Source: Lysobacter sp. (GTDB taxonomy: Bacteria > Pseudomonadota > Gammaproteobacteria > Xanthomonadales > Xanthomonadaceae). From it: a stretch of DNA of 64,000 bases. This document shows positions 2,391 through 7,978 of the stretch, piece by piece. Within the stretch, counting starts at the first letter, position 1. The number at the start of each line of letters is the position of its first letter. Made by a program: the position numbers and the translations under genes. The notes under the pieces are model-generated. The model searched no databases. It was not told the DNA's origin and saw nothing but the letters and a program-made list of their open reading frames with translations. The stretch is taken from the NCBI GenBank assembly GCA_013141175.1, contig JABFRN010000001.1:248001-312000 (forward strand). Direction: 5' to 3'.

Positions 2391-2475
2391 GGGATCGATC
2401 CGGGGCAATTGGGCGCCGACATTAACAGATGCATCCGGATCCTTCAGATCGATGGCGGGTCAAGTCTCGCGAAAC

Positions 2476-2503
2476 AATGAGAAAGAACGGGATGCGTCTC
2501 ATT
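2476..2503. promoter_or_regulatory. Inverted repeat, possible activator-binding site
   Basis: AATGAGA (2476-2482) and TCTCATT (2497-2503) are perfect inverse complements around a 14-base spacer, giving arm centres about two helical turns apart. The site lies about 170-200 bases upstream of the sigma-54 promoter, where enhancer-binding proteins usually sit. The binding protein is unknown; this is inference from symmetry and position. Confidence 0.4.
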
Positions 2504-2674
2504 TTGCCCTCGATTGTCACCTCGCTGTTGTAGAGCCGACGAAAAGTTGACCCTCCGCGTCGTCGACACGCGCCAAGACCGTCGAGCGGCCTCTGATCGG
2601 ACTGCCCGAACATGTCCGCAGCAAACGCGGCCCGGCAGCGCAGCCTGCAAAGTCCGGATCCCGGAGATCCTGGA

Positions 2675-2692
2675 CTGGCACGGAACCTGCTT
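2675..2692 (+). promoter_or_regulatory. Sigma-54 (RpoN) promoter of the Roadblock/GTPase operon
   Basis: The sequence CTGGCACGGAACCTGCTT matches the RpoN consensus (TGGCACG-N4-TTGCW) at all but one position. The invariant GG is at 2677-2678 and the invariant GC at 2689-2690, exactly ten bases apart. Transcription would start near 2702, about 23 bases before the GTG at 2725 and 80 bases before the alternative ATG at 2782. RpoN promoters need an ATP-dependent activator, so the operon is probably switched on by a specific signal. Confidence 0.78.
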
Positions 2693-2724
2693 GAGAATCA
2701 TTCACAACCATACCGGAACCCGCC

Positions 2725-3174
2725 GTGTCGGCCGCCCTCAAAGTGATTGAATCTTCGAACTCGCAAGTGACCGACGTGAGCATGCCAGCACGCATGAACT
2801 GCCAGAACGTGCTGGTGGCCTTGCTTGAACGGAAACCGGCAGTCCTCTTCGCATCAATGGCCACTGTCGACGGCCGCAGCTATGCGCACGCCAACAGCAC
2901 CGCAAGCAAGGCCAATGCGCAGCGCTCGGCGGCGATCATGAGCTCGCTGATGGGCTTGATCGAATCCTTCAGTCGCGAATCCCTCAACAGTCGCGCGCTG
3001 TACAACAGCATCGCCACCGAGCACGGTTCCATCGTCATGGTGCGGATTCCATCGAAAGCGAAGCTGCACACGCTCTGCGTATGCGCGGACGCGAGCGAAA
3101 ACCTCGCGATGACCATCCGCAGTGCACTCGATACCGCCGCACTGCTCGCCGGAGAAGTCGACGCCATCTATTGA
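2725..3174 (+). CDS. Roadblock/LC7 domain protein (first of two)
   Basis: This 149-residue cytoplasmic protein has the Roadblock/LC7 pattern of alternating helices and strands from about residue 25 to 140. It ends in a long helix rich in Ala and small residues. Roadblock proteins dimerise and bind small GTPases, for example MglB with MglA, or CvnB in Streptomyces conservons. The start is uncertain: a GTG at 2725 gives the longest product, while the ATG at 2782 would remove 19 residues outside the core domain. It is the first gene after the sigma-54 promoter and heads an operon with a second Roadblock protein and a GTPase at 4784. Confidence 0.75.
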   Translation: MSAALKVIESSNSQVTDVSMPARMNCQNVLVALLERKPAVLFASMATVDGRSYAHANSTASKANAQRSAAIMSSLMGLIESFSRESLNSRALYNSIATEHGSIVMVRIPSKAKLHTLCVCADASENLAMTIRSALDTAALLAGEVDAIY

Positions 3175-3315
3175 TGGTGCCCGACAGGCACCACAGCCGT
3201 AGCGTCTTCGGGCTTCCGCCCGAGAACCAGCCGCTTCGCGCGAATCGTTTCGCCACGCGTTCCGCAGAAAAACCCGCTTCCCACCGTTTCACACACAGCA
3301 TAGGACCCGAACACC

Positions 3316-3672
3316 ATGGCCAAGATTTCCCTCGAACCGCTGCGCAACCTCGACGGCTACCTCGCCGCCGCCCTCGTCGATGCCGACAGCGGCATGCTGC
3401 TGGCCGGCGACGGTTCGGGCGTGAACCTCGAACTTGCCGCTGCCGGCAATTCCGAAGTCGTACGCTCCAAGCGCAAGGTCGCCAACGCGCTGAAGCTCAA
3501 CGACACCATCGAAGACATCCTCATCAGCCTGACCAAGCAGTACCACATCATCCGTCCGCTCGAATCGAACCAGAAACTGTTCCTCTACGTGGTGCTGGAT
3601 CGCTCCAAGTCCAATCTCGCGATGGCGCGCCACGAACTGCGCACGTTCGAGAAGAGCGTCGACTTCTCTTGA
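3316..3672 (+). CDS. Roadblock/LC7 domain protein (second of two)
   Basis: A 118-residue protein made up almost entirely of one Roadblock/LC7 fold. It has an N-terminal helix, the strand pair [16 protein letters not shown], a central helix, a second strand set around YHIIRPL and LFLYVVLD, and a C-terminal helix. It shares little obvious sequence with the Roadblock protein 141 bases upstream, so the pair may form a heterodimer or act at different steps on the GTPase encoded downstream. It probably tunes that GTPase by scaffolding or as an activating protein, as MglB does for MglA. The partner assignment is inferred from gene order. Confidence 0.8.
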
Positions 3673-3775
3673 TGCAATCACCGACGCGGTGCGGGTTTCC
3701 CCGCACCGCCGGCCACGCAGGCGTCGCAATGGCGTCTGCGCACGCCCCCTCCCAGAATCGTCTTCGACGGAAGCC

Positions 3776-4708
3776 ATGATCCGCTTCGATATCGCCATCG
3801 CCGCACTCAGCGAGCAGGCCGAACAACGCATCCGGATCGCGGCCATTCTGCTCGCCGCCTACCGCATCCGCGCACAGGTCCGCACCTGGGACGGGACGCG
3901 CTGCGGCGCGCTGGTGGCCGATGTGTCCGATGCCTACGGCCGCCAAGCCGTTGCCCTCGCGAAACGGCGCGGCACCCCGATGCTGCTGTTCGGAGCCGAT
4001 GGGCAGGCACCGGAACCCGGCATCGCATTGACCACTGAAGCCAACCCCGCGCCGATACTGGCGCAGACCCTGCGCGAGCTGCTGGGCGCCGTCGAACCCG
4101 TCGATGGACAGGCCATCGCGGCCGGCGGCCCGACACCAGCGCTGTGCCGCCTTGCCGAACCCGAGTTCAGTGGGCGGGCTGTCGATGCGACCTATGGCGG
4201 TCGGATCGTTCGTATCCGTCCGGAAGCAGGCCGCGTGTATGCCCCGACGTTCAGCGACCTGCTGTCCGCGCGCGACAGTTTCGCCAGCGCCGAATGGCAC
4301 CTCAGCACTGCGGACGGCGAAACCCCGGCAACTGACGACGGCGGCGCCAACCGCAGCCTGGAGGCATTCCTGCTGCAGGCCGCTTTCCAGGGCCGCGACC
4401 AGTTGCCTGCGTTTCCTCCGGGTCGCTACCAGCTGAAGGAATGGCCCGACGTGGGCTCGGCGCCCGAGCTGGTCGGTGCGCTGAAGATCGCGAAATTGCT
4501 GCTGCGCGAGGCCGCAAGCGCGGAAGAACTGCTGGCATGCAGCAAGGTCGGCGCGCGGGATATCAATGCCAGCCTCTGGGCCTATCGAGCGGCCAATCTG
4601 CTCGACGCGCAGGGCGAATCCGCCGGTGGCGAACCACCACCACGACCGTCCGCAGGCGCCTTCTCGGGAATCCTGGCGCGCATCGCCAGCCGTTTCGGGC
4701 TGGGCTAG
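3776..4708 (+). CDS. Unknown protein of the Roadblock/GTPase operon, possibly receiver-like plus winged helix
   Basis: This 310-residue soluble protein is not one I recognise. Residues 1-110 alternate strands and helices like a Rossmann or degenerate receiver domain, beginning IRFDIAIAALS and reaching TPMLLFGADG. Near the C-terminus, a stretch containing ASAEELLACSKVGARDI resembles the short winged-helix-like end of DUF4388/PATAN-type proteins that accompany bacterial Roadblock-GTPase systems. Both readings are weak. The start at 3776 has a GGAAG just upstream; in-frame codons before it encode an Arg-rich stretch unlike a real N-terminus. It lies between the second Roadblock gene and the GTPase, so a scaffold or output role in the same system is likely. 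Confidence 0.6.
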   Translation: MIRFDIAIAALSEQAEQRIRIAAILLAAYRIRAQVRTWDGTRCGALVADVSDAYGRQAVALAKRRGTPMLLFGADGQAPEPGIALTTEANPAPILAQTLRELLGAVEPVDGQAIAAGGPTPALCRLAEPEFSGRAVDATYGGRIVRIRPEAGRVYAPTFSDLLSARDSFASAEWHLSTADGETPATDDGGANRSLEAFLLQAAFQGRDQLPAFPPGRYQLKEWPDVGSAPELVGALKIAKLLLREAASAEELLACSKVGARDINASLWAYRAANLLDAQGESAGGEPPPRPSAGAFSGILARIASRFGLG

Positions 4709-4783
4709 GCGCGACTGCCATGACAGGGGTCCTGGCCGCACGTTCGGCAAGGACGCACACGAAACGGAACAGTGGGAGAGGCT

Positions 4784-5311
4784 GTGTCATTCGATAGCGC
4801 AAAACTGGTATTCGCCGGCCCGGTCGGCGCTGGCAAGACCACCGCCATACGATCGTTGTCGGACTTCGAGCCCGTATCGACGGAAATGCCGCTGACCGAT
4901 GGTCCGATGGGCGAAAAGACCACGACGACGGTCGCACTGGACTTCGCGCCGGTGTCGCTCGAAGACGGCACGCCGCTGCATCTCTACGGCCTGCCCGGCC
5001 AGGAACACTTCTCGCACATGCGGCCGATCGTGATGGCCGGCGCGGTCGGCGTGATCGTGGTGTTGCCCGGCGACAACGCGCGGATTTCCGACGAATGCGA
5101 GCGCTGGCTCCGCACGATCCGCGATATCACGACCGACGCTGGCGTGGTGATCGGCATCACCCGCACCGACCTGGTCGGCAACTTCCGCATGGACACCATC
5201 CGCGACGCCGTGCGCCGCTGCGGCCCGCCGGTCCCGGTCTTCACTTTCGACGCCCGCGACCGCGAGCAGACTTCGCATCTGGTCCGGGCGCTGCTGCTGT
5301 CACTCGATTGA
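4784..5311 (+). CDS. COG2229-type small GTPase (MglA/CvnD-like)
   Basis: A 175-residue single-domain P-loop GTPase. The G1 loop GPVGAGKTT starts near residue 11. The usual DxxG of G3 is replaced by YGLPGQEHF, as is common in this group, and G4 reads TRTDL. The group (COG2229) is best known as CvnD in Streptomyces conservons, which are encoded beside a Roadblock protein, and is related to MglA. I chose the GTG at 4784, placed five bases after GGGAG; another GTG at 4772 would add four residues and lacks that spacing. It is probably the switch of the operon, with the two Roadblock proteins as regulators. Its stop overlaps the TTG start of the next gene. Confidence 0.82.
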   Translation: MSFDSAKLVFAGPVGAGKTTAIRSLSDFEPVSTEMPLTDGPMGEKTTTTVALDFAPVSLEDGTPLHLYGLPGQEHFSHMRPIVMAGAVGVIVVLPGDNARISDECERWLRTIRDITTDAGVVIGITRTDLVGNFRMDTIRDAVRRCGPPVPVFTFDARDREQTSHLVRALLLSLD

Positions 5312-6246
5312 GCGCCGATACGCACGAGATCGTCTCGGCGTTCGCGCAGGCCGGGCTCGATCTGCACGGAACGCTGCGCGAGATGCTCGACGAGCATCCC
5401 GCTCATCGCACCGAACGGCGCGGCTGCGGCTATACCCAGGCCTCACGATTCCTGTCGACCTTCATCAACCAGCCACGTCGTCCCGACCAATCGCTGGATT
5501 TCGGTCTGTTCGCCGAATGGCCGAAAGCGCGGACCGAAGCGTTGGCGCGGCAAGCCATCGCTGCCGGCTGGGCGCGGGGTTGGCGGCGCTTGGACCGATG
5601 CGACCCCGCGATGCGCGCGCACCTGCTTCCGGAATCGCTGGCAGCGCAGCTCGCAACGCTGCCGAAAATCCTCGCCGACATCGAAGCCGGCCTGCAGCAC
5701 GAGGAAAGCCGCCTGCTGATGACGCTGATCCGGCAGATCCTCGCGCCCGAGGCGCCCGCTGCGCCGTCGATAACGGAAATGAGCGAGAAGCCCGAGATCG
5801 GCAGCTGCTCGCGGGCGGAGGAGTTTTTTCTTGAAATCGCGCACGGCCGCGTGCGCCGCAACGGACGCGTCAATGTTTTCGTCGACAACGCCTGCCAACC
5901 GCTGCTGGTGGAAAAATTGGGGCTGGGAGAATCCCATTCGGCGATGGCGGTGGCGCCGGTGACGATCTGCGATGTGGTGCTGCCGCCGGGGTCGCTGTTC
6001 GCGCTACGCTATCCCGACGAAACAAAGCCGAAACGCGATATCGCCTGCGGGCACTTGCTGCCCATCGAAGCGATCACGCAGGCGCGTTTTCTGCGCCTGA
6101 CCACGCTGGCCGTATCGACTGCCATACGCCGCCGGGCATTCAGCGCGCAGTTCGAAGCGCAATTGCGCGGCGACATGCTTTCGCCAGCGAGTACCACCAT
6201 CGACGACCTGCGGCAGTTCGCGCTCGACAATCTGGCGCGCGGCTGA
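5308..6246 (+). CDS. Unknown protein, last gene of the Roadblock/GTPase operon
   Basis: I do not recognise this 312-residue protein. The frame overlaps the GTPase stop (TTGA), which suggests a coupled TTG start at 5308; the frame is open further upstream but there it shadows the GTPase gene. The first half is mainly helical. The second half contains a compact alpha/beta region with VNVFVDNACQPLLVEKLGL and VTICDVVLPPGSLFALRY, which could be a small beta domain, then a helical C-terminus. There is no signal peptide, membrane helix or known catalytic motif. Position and coupling suggest it is an effector or partner of the GTPase. Confidence 0.62.
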   Translation: MSADTHEIVSAFAQAGLDLHGTLREMLDEHPAHRTERRGCGYTQASRFLSTFINQPRRPDQSLDFGLFAEWPKARTEALARQAIAAGWARGWRRLDRCDPAMRAHLLPESLAAQLATLPKILADIEAGLQHEESRLLMTLIRQILAPEAPAAPSITEMSEKPEIGSCSRAEEFFLEIAHGRVRRNGRVNVFVDNACQPLLVEKLGLGESHSAMAVAPVTICDVVLPPGSLFALRYPDETKPKRDIACGHLLPIEAITQARFLRLTTLAVSTAIRRRAFSAQFEAQLRGDMLSPASTTIDDLRQFALDNLARG

Positions 6247-6258
6247 CAGCCGCTCTCG

Positions 6259-7146
6259 ATGATACGCATCCCTGCTTGCTTCCACCCCGACTACGCCCCC
6301 GACGAGATCCCATTGTTGGCGCGACTGGGCACGACTGCCGCGAAACTGGAAAGACTCGGCCTGGCGGAACTGATTCCTCCCCGACCCTTCGACACGGAAC
6401 TTCTCCTCGGCCTGCATGATGAGCGCTACCTGCGTGCGTTCCTGTGCGGCGAAGAACCGATGGCGTCGAGACAGGGCATTCGCTGGTCGCCGCGCGTGCG
6501 CGACGCCGCCTTGGCGATGCTCGGTGGCCAGCTGGCGGCATCGGACACGGCGCATCGCGAAGGCATCGCCATGAACATCGCGCGCGGTTTCCATCATGCG
6601 GCACCGGCCTCCGGCAGCGGCTACTGCCCATTGAACGGCCTCGCCCTCCTCGCGCATATCGACAAAGACCGCAGGGTGATGGTCATCGATTGCGATGAAC
6701 ACGGCGGCAACGGGACCGAGGAATTCGCAGCGCGGCTACCCAACCTTTACAACGTCTCGATTTTTGGCACCCGCTTCGGATGCCGCGGAGGTACGCGCTC
6801 GTGGGCCATGCAGGTCCGCGCGCGCGAGCAGGGCTTTCGGCATTATCTGGATGCGCTTCGGGAAGCCGAAACGCTCGTCGATGCACATCGCCCGGATCTG
6901 CTGGTGTATCAGGCCGGCGCGGACTGCCACGAAAACGACCCCAAGAGCCAAGTGGGTCTGACCACGATGCAAATGTTCCAACGCGATATCGCCGTATTCA
7001 GGATCGCACGCATGCGCGGCATTCCTGTCGTCTTCGTCGTAGCCGGCGGTTATCAGGACGCCGAACGCGTGGCGCGACTCAATGCCAATACGGTGCGTGC
7101 CGCGCGCTGGGTCTGGCGCCAGCATTCGCCTACCAACCATACTTGA
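6259..7146 (+). CDS. Histone deacetylase family protein (zinc-dependent deacetylase)
   Basis: This 295-residue protein belongs to the class of AcuC, acetylpolyamine amidohydrolases and eukaryotic HDACs. Visible motifs are GFHHA (catalytic His pair near 112-113), IDCDEHGGNGT (zinc ligands near Asp146 and His148), and GADCHENDP, which holds the third zinc ligand. It should remove acetyl groups from protein lysines or small amines; the substrate cannot be read from sequence. It starts 12 bases after the GTPase operon, so it may be co-transcribed with it. The length is typical of the short bacterial members. Confidence 0.88.
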   Translation: MIRIPACFHPDYAPDEIPLLARLGTTAAKLERLGLAELIPPRPFDTELLLGLHDERYLRAFLCGEEPMASRQGIRWSPRVRDAALAMLGGQLAASDTAHREGIAMNIARGFHHAAPASGSGYCPLNGLALLAHIDKDRRVMVIDCDEHGGNGTEEFAARLPNLYNVSIFGTRFGCRGGTRSWAMQVRAREQGFRHYLDALREAETLVDAHRPDLLVYQAGADCHENDPKSQVGLTTMQMFQRDIAVFRIARMRGIPVVFVVAGGYQDAERVARLNANTVRAARWVWRQHSPTNHT

Positions 7147-7177
7147 TCAACACGGGCATACGCCCTGCGAGATAAGC

Positions 7178-7978
7178 ATGCCCACTACGCCATCCGTTGC
7201 AGGCCCTCCGATGCCCGCGCTGTTCATCGGCCACGGTTCGCCGATGAACGCGATCGACGACAACGCATGGTCGCGTGCGTGGCATGCGCTGGGCACGCGG
7301 CTGCCACGCCCTCGCGCGATCCTGTGCATCTCCGCGCACTGGGAAACGCCGGGGCCATGGCTCACCGGAAGCGCCGCACCGCCGACGATCCACGACTTCG
7401 GCGGGTTCCCGCAGGCGCTGTTCGATGTGCGTTATCCGGCGCCGGGCGCTCCCGCGCTGGCGCAACGTGTGGTCGAACTGCTGGGCGAGGATGCGTCGGC
7501 GCGCATCCACCCCGAACGCGGGCTCGATCACGGCGCATGGGGCGTGCTGCGACCGATGTATCCCGACGCCGATATTCCCGTCGTCCAGCTCGGCATCGAT
7601 TCGCGCCGGCCGGGCGCATGGCATGTCGCGCTGGCGCAACGCTTGGCGCCGCTGCGCGACGAAGGCGTGCTGGTGATCGCCAGCGGCGACATCGTCCACA
7701 ACCTGCGGCTGTTCGACTGGCACGACCAGACCCCGCTGCCGTGGGCGCTGCGTTTCCGCGATCGCGTCAATGCGCTGATCCGCGAGGGGCATCTCGCCGC
7801 GCTCGCCGATTGGCCCGCGCTGGGCGAAGATGCGGTGCTCTCGATTCCCACCCCCGAGCATTACCTGCCGCTGCTGTACGCGCTGGCGTTGGCGCGCGAC
7901 GGCGATGCCCTGGAATTCTTCAACGATGATGTGATCGGCTCGCTGTCGATGACCTCGCTACTGATCGGACACGCATGA
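7178..7978 (+). CDS. ygiD: 4,5-DOPA dioxygenase extradiol family protein (YgiD-like)
   Basis: A 266-residue protein of the LigB-fold extradiol ring-cleavage family. It shows the expected GHGSPMN near the N-terminus, SAHWET, LDHGAWG, and SGDIVHN, which carry the metal-binding and catalytic His residues. E. coli YgiD opens the ring of L-DOPA; other members act on related catechols. The ATG at 7178 was chosen because the family motif GHGSPMN normally lies within the first twenty residues; the open frame extends 32 codons further without family resemblance. The next gene overlaps its stop by ATGA. Confidence 0.88.
   Translation: MPTTPSVAGPPMPALFIGHGSPMNAIDDNAWSRAWHALGTRLPRPRAILCISAHWETPGPWLTGSAAPPTIHDFGGFPQALFDVRYPAPGAPALAQRVVELLGEDASARIHPERGLDHGAWGVLRPMYPDADIPVVQLGIDSRRPGAWHVALAQRLAPLRDEGVLVIASGDIVHNLRLFDWHDQTPLPWALRFRDRVNALIREGHLAALADWPALGEDAVLSIPTPEHYLPLLYALALARDGDALEFFNDDVIGSLSMTSLLIGHA

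What the first reader, a model, noticed from the sequence alone, without database searches (positions are those of the whole stretch)
2675..6246. Sigma-54-driven operon of two Roadblock proteins, a small GTPase and two unknown proteins
Seen: a near-perfect RpoN promoter (GG and GC ten bases apart) followed by five genes in one direction: two Roadblock/LC7 proteins, an unknown protein, a COG2229-type GTPase and another unknown protein. Known: Roadblock-GTPase pairs act as polarity or signalling switches (MglB-MglA, Streptomyces conservons), and RpoN often controls pili, flagella and nitrogen functions. Inferred: a conservon-like switch in a non-actinobacterium under signal-dependent control, perhaps for surface motility or polarity. 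I know no description of this five-gene set.
Basis: partly seen in the sequence, partly recalled or inferred. Interest (0 to 1): 0.82.

Follow-up and report, generated by a model that had tools for sequence, protein, structure and literature searches.

The report
RpoN-driven GTPase–roadblock–deacylase gene cassette
A Lysobacter-like bacterium carries a compact, present-or-absent set of six genes that looks like a small-GTPase molecular switch of an already described but little-studied bacterial kind, here under a nitrogen-type (RpoN) promoter and joined to a deacetylase-like enzyme and a protein of unknown family.

Summary
The observation largely holds: an RpoN-type site at 2676-2691 (best of the 64 kb, one mismatch) and five co-directional genes A-B-C-D-E. 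The unit is six genes: a deacetylase-family gene (F, 6259-7146) belongs to it, since the nearest relative examined lacks A-F as one 4.8-kb block. The RpoN site lies upstream of A in 9 of 15 A-first loci (chance about 2% each) and in none of 10 other layouts. The GTPase, roadblock A and gene C (degenerate receiver plus probable winged helix) match the published 'Group 3 MglA' systems of beta/gamma-proteobacteria, so the core is a known kind; it is not an actinobacterial conservon. B is only a probable roadblock protein. New: the RpoN promoter and the E-F pair, kept together in 27 of 28 E loci, attached to two GTPase lineages, and sometimes kept with B where the neighbouring GTPase is gone. E has no family and no convincing fold match. 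Most likely an RpoN-induced GTPase/roadblock switch with adaptor C and a deacylase arm E-F. Pilus genes are near-universal in relatives, so the motility reading stays untested. New variant of a known kind.

The parts
2676..2691 (+). RpoN (sigma-54) promoter -24/-12 element
   Evidence: Best hit in 64 kb; site of 14.5 bits or more upstream of A in 9 of 15 A-first loci, against about 1.9% of random 510-nt pieces at 14 bits; flanks have diverged to 0.31 mean pairwise identity
2725..3174 (+). A: MglB-type roadblock protein, probable GAP/regulator of D (149 aa)
   Evidence: Profile finds solved roadblock proteins at 2e-11 to 1e-10, incl. cvnB5; D49-G50 invariant in 18 rows
3316..3672 (+). B: very conserved second, probable roadblock protein (118 aa)
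   Evidence: Pfam Robl_LC7 E 1e-3, below cut-off; PDB profile hit 7yh1 roadblock E 0.046; 47-92% identity over 22 rows
3776..4708 (+). C: degenerate receiver domain + beta middle + probable winged helix (310 aa)
4784..5311 (+). D: small Ras/MglA-type GTPase (175 aa)
   Evidence: GPVGAGKTT, GLPGQ, TRTD, DAR motifs; counts over 23 rows; Rab/Sec4 and MglA structures found
5308..6246 (+). E: protein of unknown family, confidently modelled (312 aa)
   Evidence: No Pfam/NCBIfam family above cut-off; pLDDT 91.6, pTM 0.90; no convincing fold match; H33, C40, Q44, C167, E171, E176, E202, K203, S211 invariant in 27 rows
6259..7146 (+). F: histone-deacetylase-family deacylase, sixth gene of the cassette (295 aa)
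   Evidence: PF00850 E 4e-35; H112, H113, D144, D146, H148, D222, Y265 invariant in 14 rows; next to E in 27 of 28 loci
2396..7208 (.). whole stretch absent from the nearest relative examined (G002) between hemJ and the dioxygenase gene
   Evidence: BLAST of the window against L102: blocks end at 2395 and resume at 7209, 73 nt apart in the relative

Best explanation
An RpoN-induced small-GTPase signalling cassette. Signal -> an enhancer-binding activator encoded elsewhere -> RpoN polymerase at 2676-2691 -> genes A-F as one unit (promoter: strong sequence evidence; co-transcription: inferred). D is the GTP/GDP switch (motifs shown). A is its MglB-type roadblock regulator, probably GAP (family shown, activity inferred). 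B is a second roadblock-like partner, probably a scaffold or modulator (inferred). C is the adaptor: its receiver domain looks degenerate, so it probably reads the state of D by binding rather than by phosphorylation and passes it on through a winged-helix part, perhaps to promoters (inferred). E and F are an output arm: F is a deacylase with a complete active site (shown by sequence), E its near-constant partner or paired enzyme (inferred from linkage). The D/A/C core is a member of the published Group 3 MglA systems by the features tested; the RpoN promoter and the E-F arm make it a variant.
For: D motifs fit Group 3 (PMC4316618 passages). C has the receiver-like N-terminus and probable winged-helix C-terminus described for the Group 3 'unknown' protein. 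C-profile hits in 34, A-profile hits in 36 of 37 GTPase regions taken from relatives, not all adjacent to the GTPase. A-F absent as a block in the nearest relative examined. E-F linkage in 27 of 28 loci. RpoN site in 9 of 15 A-first loci, one rpoN, nine activator-family hits of 166-235 bits. D tree: E-F carriers in both deep GTPase lineages.
Against: B-E-F stand without adjacent C-D-A in L080, L083, L089, and E-F without any of A-D within 8 kb in L097, so E-F need not serve this GTPase. 34 of the 189 sampled family genomes without E still have B. No complex was modelled. The winged helix of C rests on weak single-member hits and secondary structure. Intergenic gaps of 141, 103 and 75 nt leave room for other promoters or processing. 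The activator-family search also rang in all 14 control genomes, so it is not specific to RpoN activators. I found no experiment on this exact set. B's family is uncertain.
Confidence: 0.6

Rival explanations
1. Polarity or type IV pilus switch: D-GTP marks a pole or stimulates pili as MglA does in Myxococcus, with A/B as GAP and co-GAP.
For: MglA structures are found by the D profile (E 6e-10, though Rab/Sec4 rank higher). In Snodgrassella a mutation in an orphan mglB of a Group 3 set gave motile flares read as altered pilus-dependent motility (PMC11112851, passages).
Against: D lacks the Group 1 arginine in G2 (T48-T49 in 23 of 23 rows). pilT family in 57 of 59 genomes over the cut-off, GTPase in 24 of 59, so presence does not track pili. 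None of the six genes, nor the four flanking genes scanned, is a pil gene. C looks like a regulator.
Confidence: 0.2
2. Two unrelated neighbours: a Group 3 GTPase system (C-D-A, B) and an independent E-F enzyme pair that merely share a promoter region.
For: B-E-F without C-D-A at the locus (L080, L083, L089) and E-F without A-D within 8 kb each side (L097); in L082 only a remnant of C-D remains while A, B, E, F persist.
Against: 17 of 28 E loci hold all of A-D; E-F carriers lie in two deep GTPase lineages with different gene orders; each of 8 genomes searched whose E-F locus shows no intact C-D-A has some GTPase hit, 6 of 8 at E 4e-60 or better; all 9 E-bearing family genomes also have B; E overlaps D by 4 nt here.
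Confidence: 0.25
3. An anti-phage defence cassette (patchy presence, GTPase plus enzyme).
For: Present/absent block within one genus.
Against: No PADLOC model matches any of six proteins at E 0.01; RpoN control and a fixed chromosomal site would be unusual (recalled).
Confidence: 0.04

Closest known systems
Group 3 MglA systems of beta/gamma-proteobacteria (Wuichet and Sogaard-Andersen 2014, PMC4316618)
   Same: MglA-type GTPase with unusual G4 and DAR G5, one or two MglB, and a conserved unknown protein with receiver-like N-terminus and winged-helix-like C-terminus; reported from Xanthomonas and Stenotrophomonas.
   Different: Here an RpoN promoter, an E-F pair (unknown protein plus HDAC-family enzyme), and order A-B-C-D-E-F; the passages I read mention neither RpoN nor a deacetylase.
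Snodgrassella mgl operon (PMC11112851)
   Same: Called Group 3 by its authors; one mglA and two coupled mglB.
   Different: A third, orphan mglB; the passages read mention no E, F or RpoN.
Actinobacterial conservon (CvnA-D)
   Same: Roadblock protein plus small GTPase plus accessory protein in one operon.
   Different: No histidine kinase and no DUF742 protein found here.
Myxococcus MglA-MglB-MglC polarity module (Group 1)
   Same: GTPase with two roadblock-type partners.
   Different: G2 arginine absent, G3 GLPGQ instead of TVPGQ; C, E and F are not known from that module (recalled).

Membership tests
Group 3 MglA system | G4 deviates from [NT]KxD, often lacking the lysine; G5 is DAR | tested here: met
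   Window TRTD and DAR. Of 23 rows: lysine at the G4 place in 2, D and R of G5 in 23 (A 16, V 6, P 1 between)
Group 3 MglA system | no arginine in G2 (threonine instead); G3 GTPGQ | tested here: inconclusive
   T48-T49 in 23 of 23; G-x-PGQ in 23 of 23, but x is T in 7, L in 9 (window L)
Group 3 MglA system | conserved unknown protein: receiver-like N-terminus, winged helix at C-terminus, variable linker | tested here: met
Group 3 MglA system | one or two coupled MglB | tested here: met
   A clearly; B probable only
Group 3 MglA system | GTPase falls in the Group 3 clade of a tree with reference sequences | not tested
   The paper's reference sequences were not in hand; my tree holds only sequences fetched here
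Actinobacterial conservon | histidine-kinase CvnA and DUF742 CvnC in the operon | tested here: not met
   No kinase or DUF742 hit at E up to 1 in A-F or in the four flanking genes scanned
Group 1 MglA (polarity) | arginine next to the G2 threonine; TVPGQ in G3 | tested here: not met
   T48-T49 in 23 of 23 rows; GLPGQ in the window
Roadblock/LC7 (A) | significant profile match | tested here: met
   Family profile to solved roadblock proteins 2e-11; single-sequence Pfam below cut-off
Roadblock/LC7 (B) | significant profile match | tested here: inconclusive
   6 of 22 members match, best E 9.5e-4; PDB E 0.046; A against B profile E 0.0055, probability 6.7
Histone deacetylase family (F) | catalytic His pair, three metal ligands, Tyr (positions recalled) | tested here: met
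   PF00850 4e-35; the seven positions invariant in 14 rows
RpoN promoter | -24 GG / -12 GC ten bases apart, recurrent upstream of relatives, rpoN in genome | tested here: met
   9 of 15 A-first loci only; actual transcription not testable here

The most novel reading that the evidence does not exclude
A Ras-like GTPase/roadblock switch directly controls reversible deacylation in bacteria: B docks the E-F enzyme pair to the D-A-C switch, so that an RpoN signal sets the acylation of a target (protein lysines, a polyamine or an envelope molecule), with E a new enzyme type built round invariant His/Cys/Glu residues.
Probability: 0.2. Interest if true: 0.8.

Novelty: new variant of a known kind. 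Interest (0 to 1): 0.52.

Why it matters
Group 3 MglA systems are reported from beta- and gamma-proteobacteria, and in the papers I could search I saw no established output for them. This cassette is small, present or absent between near relatives, has one recognisable promoter, and names two candidate outputs (C and E-F). That makes the question of what these GTPases control testable with a deletion and an enzyme assay, and it would link GTPase signalling to deacetylase-family enzymes, a link for which one search found no paper.

Tried and rejected

Weak points of my own controls: the nine RpoN sites were chosen by their score, so their high core identity (0.86) is partly by construction; the independent points are how often a site occurs at that place (9 of 15 A-first loci, about 1.9% by chance) and that the flanks have diverged. 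Four of the 28 E loci (L081, L084, L091, L098, cut by contig ends) were not scanned for the site. The E scan used two short peptide patterns and can miss relatives. The D tree carries a long-branch warning that touches the lineage holding L087 and L092.

Literature: searched (open-access PMC only). Of these I read passages and one whole section of PMC4316618 and passages of PMC11112851; all others were seen as listings with the start of the abstract. In these I saw no description of the E-F pair or of an RpoN-driven Group 3 set; (roadblock + histone deacetylase + GTPase + bacteria + operon) returned 0 papers.
Full report
WHAT IS THERE. On the + strand, 2676-2691 is TGGCACGGAACCTGCT, one mismatch from the RpoN consensus (recalled), and the best such site on either strand of the 64 kb (15.7 bits, next 13.8). 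E begins on a TTG that overlaps D's stop. F starts 12 nt after E. Several relatives have a GTG start for D at the same place (L074, L076, L077, L079). Upstream lie an alkaline phosphatase gene and, on the other strand, a UPF0093 (hemJ-like) gene; downstream, after F, a LigB-type dioxygenase and a methyltransferase gene.

THE UNIT IS SIX GENES. In five same-genus relatives A-B-C-D-E-F sit between the hemJ-like and dioxygenase genes. Of five same-genus genomes without a close D orthologue, four gave both flanking genes: in G002, G006, G007 and G009 the matched parts of the two lie 74 to 83 nt apart; G005 (86% complete) gave neither. For G002, whose hemJ is 96% and dioxygenase 93% identical, the alignment stops at window 2395 and resumes at 7209, with 73 nt in between. 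So some 4.8 kb, the promoter and A to F, come or go together; the dioxygenase gene is not part of it. Close D orthologues (E 4e-90 or better) are in the window's own genome and in 5 of the 10 other same-genus genomes searched.

RPON. Of 25 loci examined (the window and 24 of the 28 E loci), a site of 14.5 bits or more lies upstream of A in 9: 9 of 15 with the order A-B-C-D-E(-F) (window, L074-L077, L079, L086, L093, L101) and 0 of 10 with other layouts (best 11.7, L087). The row for L077 in that table missed its site because I had set the gene start too far upstream; the site is in the same call's printout and scores 17.9 (same locus as L037). The six A-first loci without it are L078, L085, L088, L090, L094, L100. 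About 1.9% of random 510-nt pieces of the loci reach 14 bits, an overestimate since the pool contains the sites. Across the 9 loci the 12 core positions are 86% identical pairwise and the 120 flanking positions 31%, with invariant columns only in the site; the sites were picked by score, so only the contrast with the diverged flanks and their recurrence count as evidence. The genome has one rpoN (4 of 14 control genomes ring) and 9 strong and 2 weak hits of the activator family, none inside the window (all 14 controls ring, so this search is not specific). Perfect consensus sites stand before genes that by eye are a glutamine synthetase, an aldehyde dehydrogenase and a TROVE-like protein. The promoter is real by sequence standards in this lineage but is not part of the wider system: regions L042, L043, L044, L046 and L047 also lack it.

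E AND F. One scan of the genome collection (84,980 species by its description) with the E profile gave 28 loci: record titles name Lysobacteraceae, Rhodanobacteraceae, a few other gamma-proteobacteria (one Agitococcus) and two myxobacterial MAGs. F follows E in 27 of 28, the 28th (L101) being cut by its contig end. A-D are all present in 17 of 28; B-E-F stand without C-D-A in L080, L083 and L089 (B on the other strand in L089), E-F without any of A-D in L097, E-F with B-like hits only in L099; B-E-F-C-D-A order occurs in L087 and L092 and C-D-A-B-E-F in L095. Others are cut by contig ends. In the sampled family (window's genome included) E is in 9 of 198 genomes and 3 of 54 genera, and B in 43 of 198, among them all 9 with E; in the order sample E is in 12 of 299, one of them a marginal 4.7e-4 hit. 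A D tree of 41 rows has two lineages split at 99/99, and E-F carriers lie in both (3 of 18 and 18 of 23 rows); starred branches force at least 2 changes. Left out of the tree: same-locus duplicates L037-L041, L043, L045, L047, L054, and L062, L064, L066, L069-L072. The tool warns of long branches there. The pattern may be repeated joining, or ancient joining with losses; the different gene orders favour repeated joining. Eight genomes whose E-F locus shows no intact C-D-A (L080, L082, L083, L089, L091, L096, L097, L099) all have GTPase hits, 6 of 8 at E 4e-60 or better, the two myxobacterial ones only at 8e-10 and 3e-9. F has the complete HDAC-family active site. E is modelled with high confidence (pLDDT 91.6, pTM 0.90) as a helical N-half and a beta-rich C-half; H33, C40, Q44, C167, E171, E176, E202, K203 and S211 are invariant in 27 rows and H210 in 26 (partial L098 and L101 not in this alignment). 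No convincing fold match was found.

HOW IT PROBABLY WORKS. A signal acting through an unidentified activator turns on A-F. D cycles between GTP and GDP under A, with B as modulator or scaffold; C reads D and may act at promoters; E-F carry out or reverse an acylation-type step. Steps from sequence: promoter, D, A, receiver-like fold of C, F active site, linkage. Inferred: all interactions, direction of regulation, targets. The polarity/pilus reading cannot be excluded: PMC11112851 (passages) reports that a mutation in an orphan mglB of a Group 3 set changed soft-agar flares in Snodgrassella. But pilT-family genes are above the cut-off in 57 of 59 genomes (58 of 59 at E 0.001; the window's own included), so co-occurrence carries no information.

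NOVELTY. The core is a member of a described kind by the features I could test, except one G3 letter, and without the tree. The RpoN promoter and the E-F arm are not mentioned in what I read, and one search found no paper with the relevant words together. Hence a new variant of a known kind, of moderate interest.

Noticed in passing
L082:1767-2081: A remnant that joins the first codons of C to the last third of D, while A, B, E and F are kept; that genome has a full-length GTPase elsewhere. A natural loss of the switch core beside an apparently kept E-F arm.
   Followed up: partly
L060, L065-L068 (for example L060:7121-10903): C-D-A systems sit beside a gene fusing an ABC-type ATPase to a tyrosine-phosphatase-like domain (L060 and L065 scanned; the others by clustering), and in L060 a 2Fe-2S/flavin oxidoreductase with a globin-like domain; a LuxR-type regulator is near in L065. 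A different, recurrent partner set for such GTPases.
   Followed up: partly
L078:10090-11013: A second C-type gene follows F, giving A-B-C-D-E-F-C.
   Followed up: no
L042:5106-9478 and L043: G045 carries two sets about 15 kb apart on one contig, one complete (A-F) and one scattered (D-A on one strand, A-B-C on the other), plus three further GTPase matches elsewhere.
   Followed up: no
window 3776-4708 (C-terminus): C proteins end in a conserved short tail resembling ARIAxRFGLG after a low-confidence linker, possibly a docking or membrane peptide.
   Followed up: no
G004:C44:119149-119499: G004 has a second, equally well conserved B gene on another contig than its cassette.
   Followed up: no
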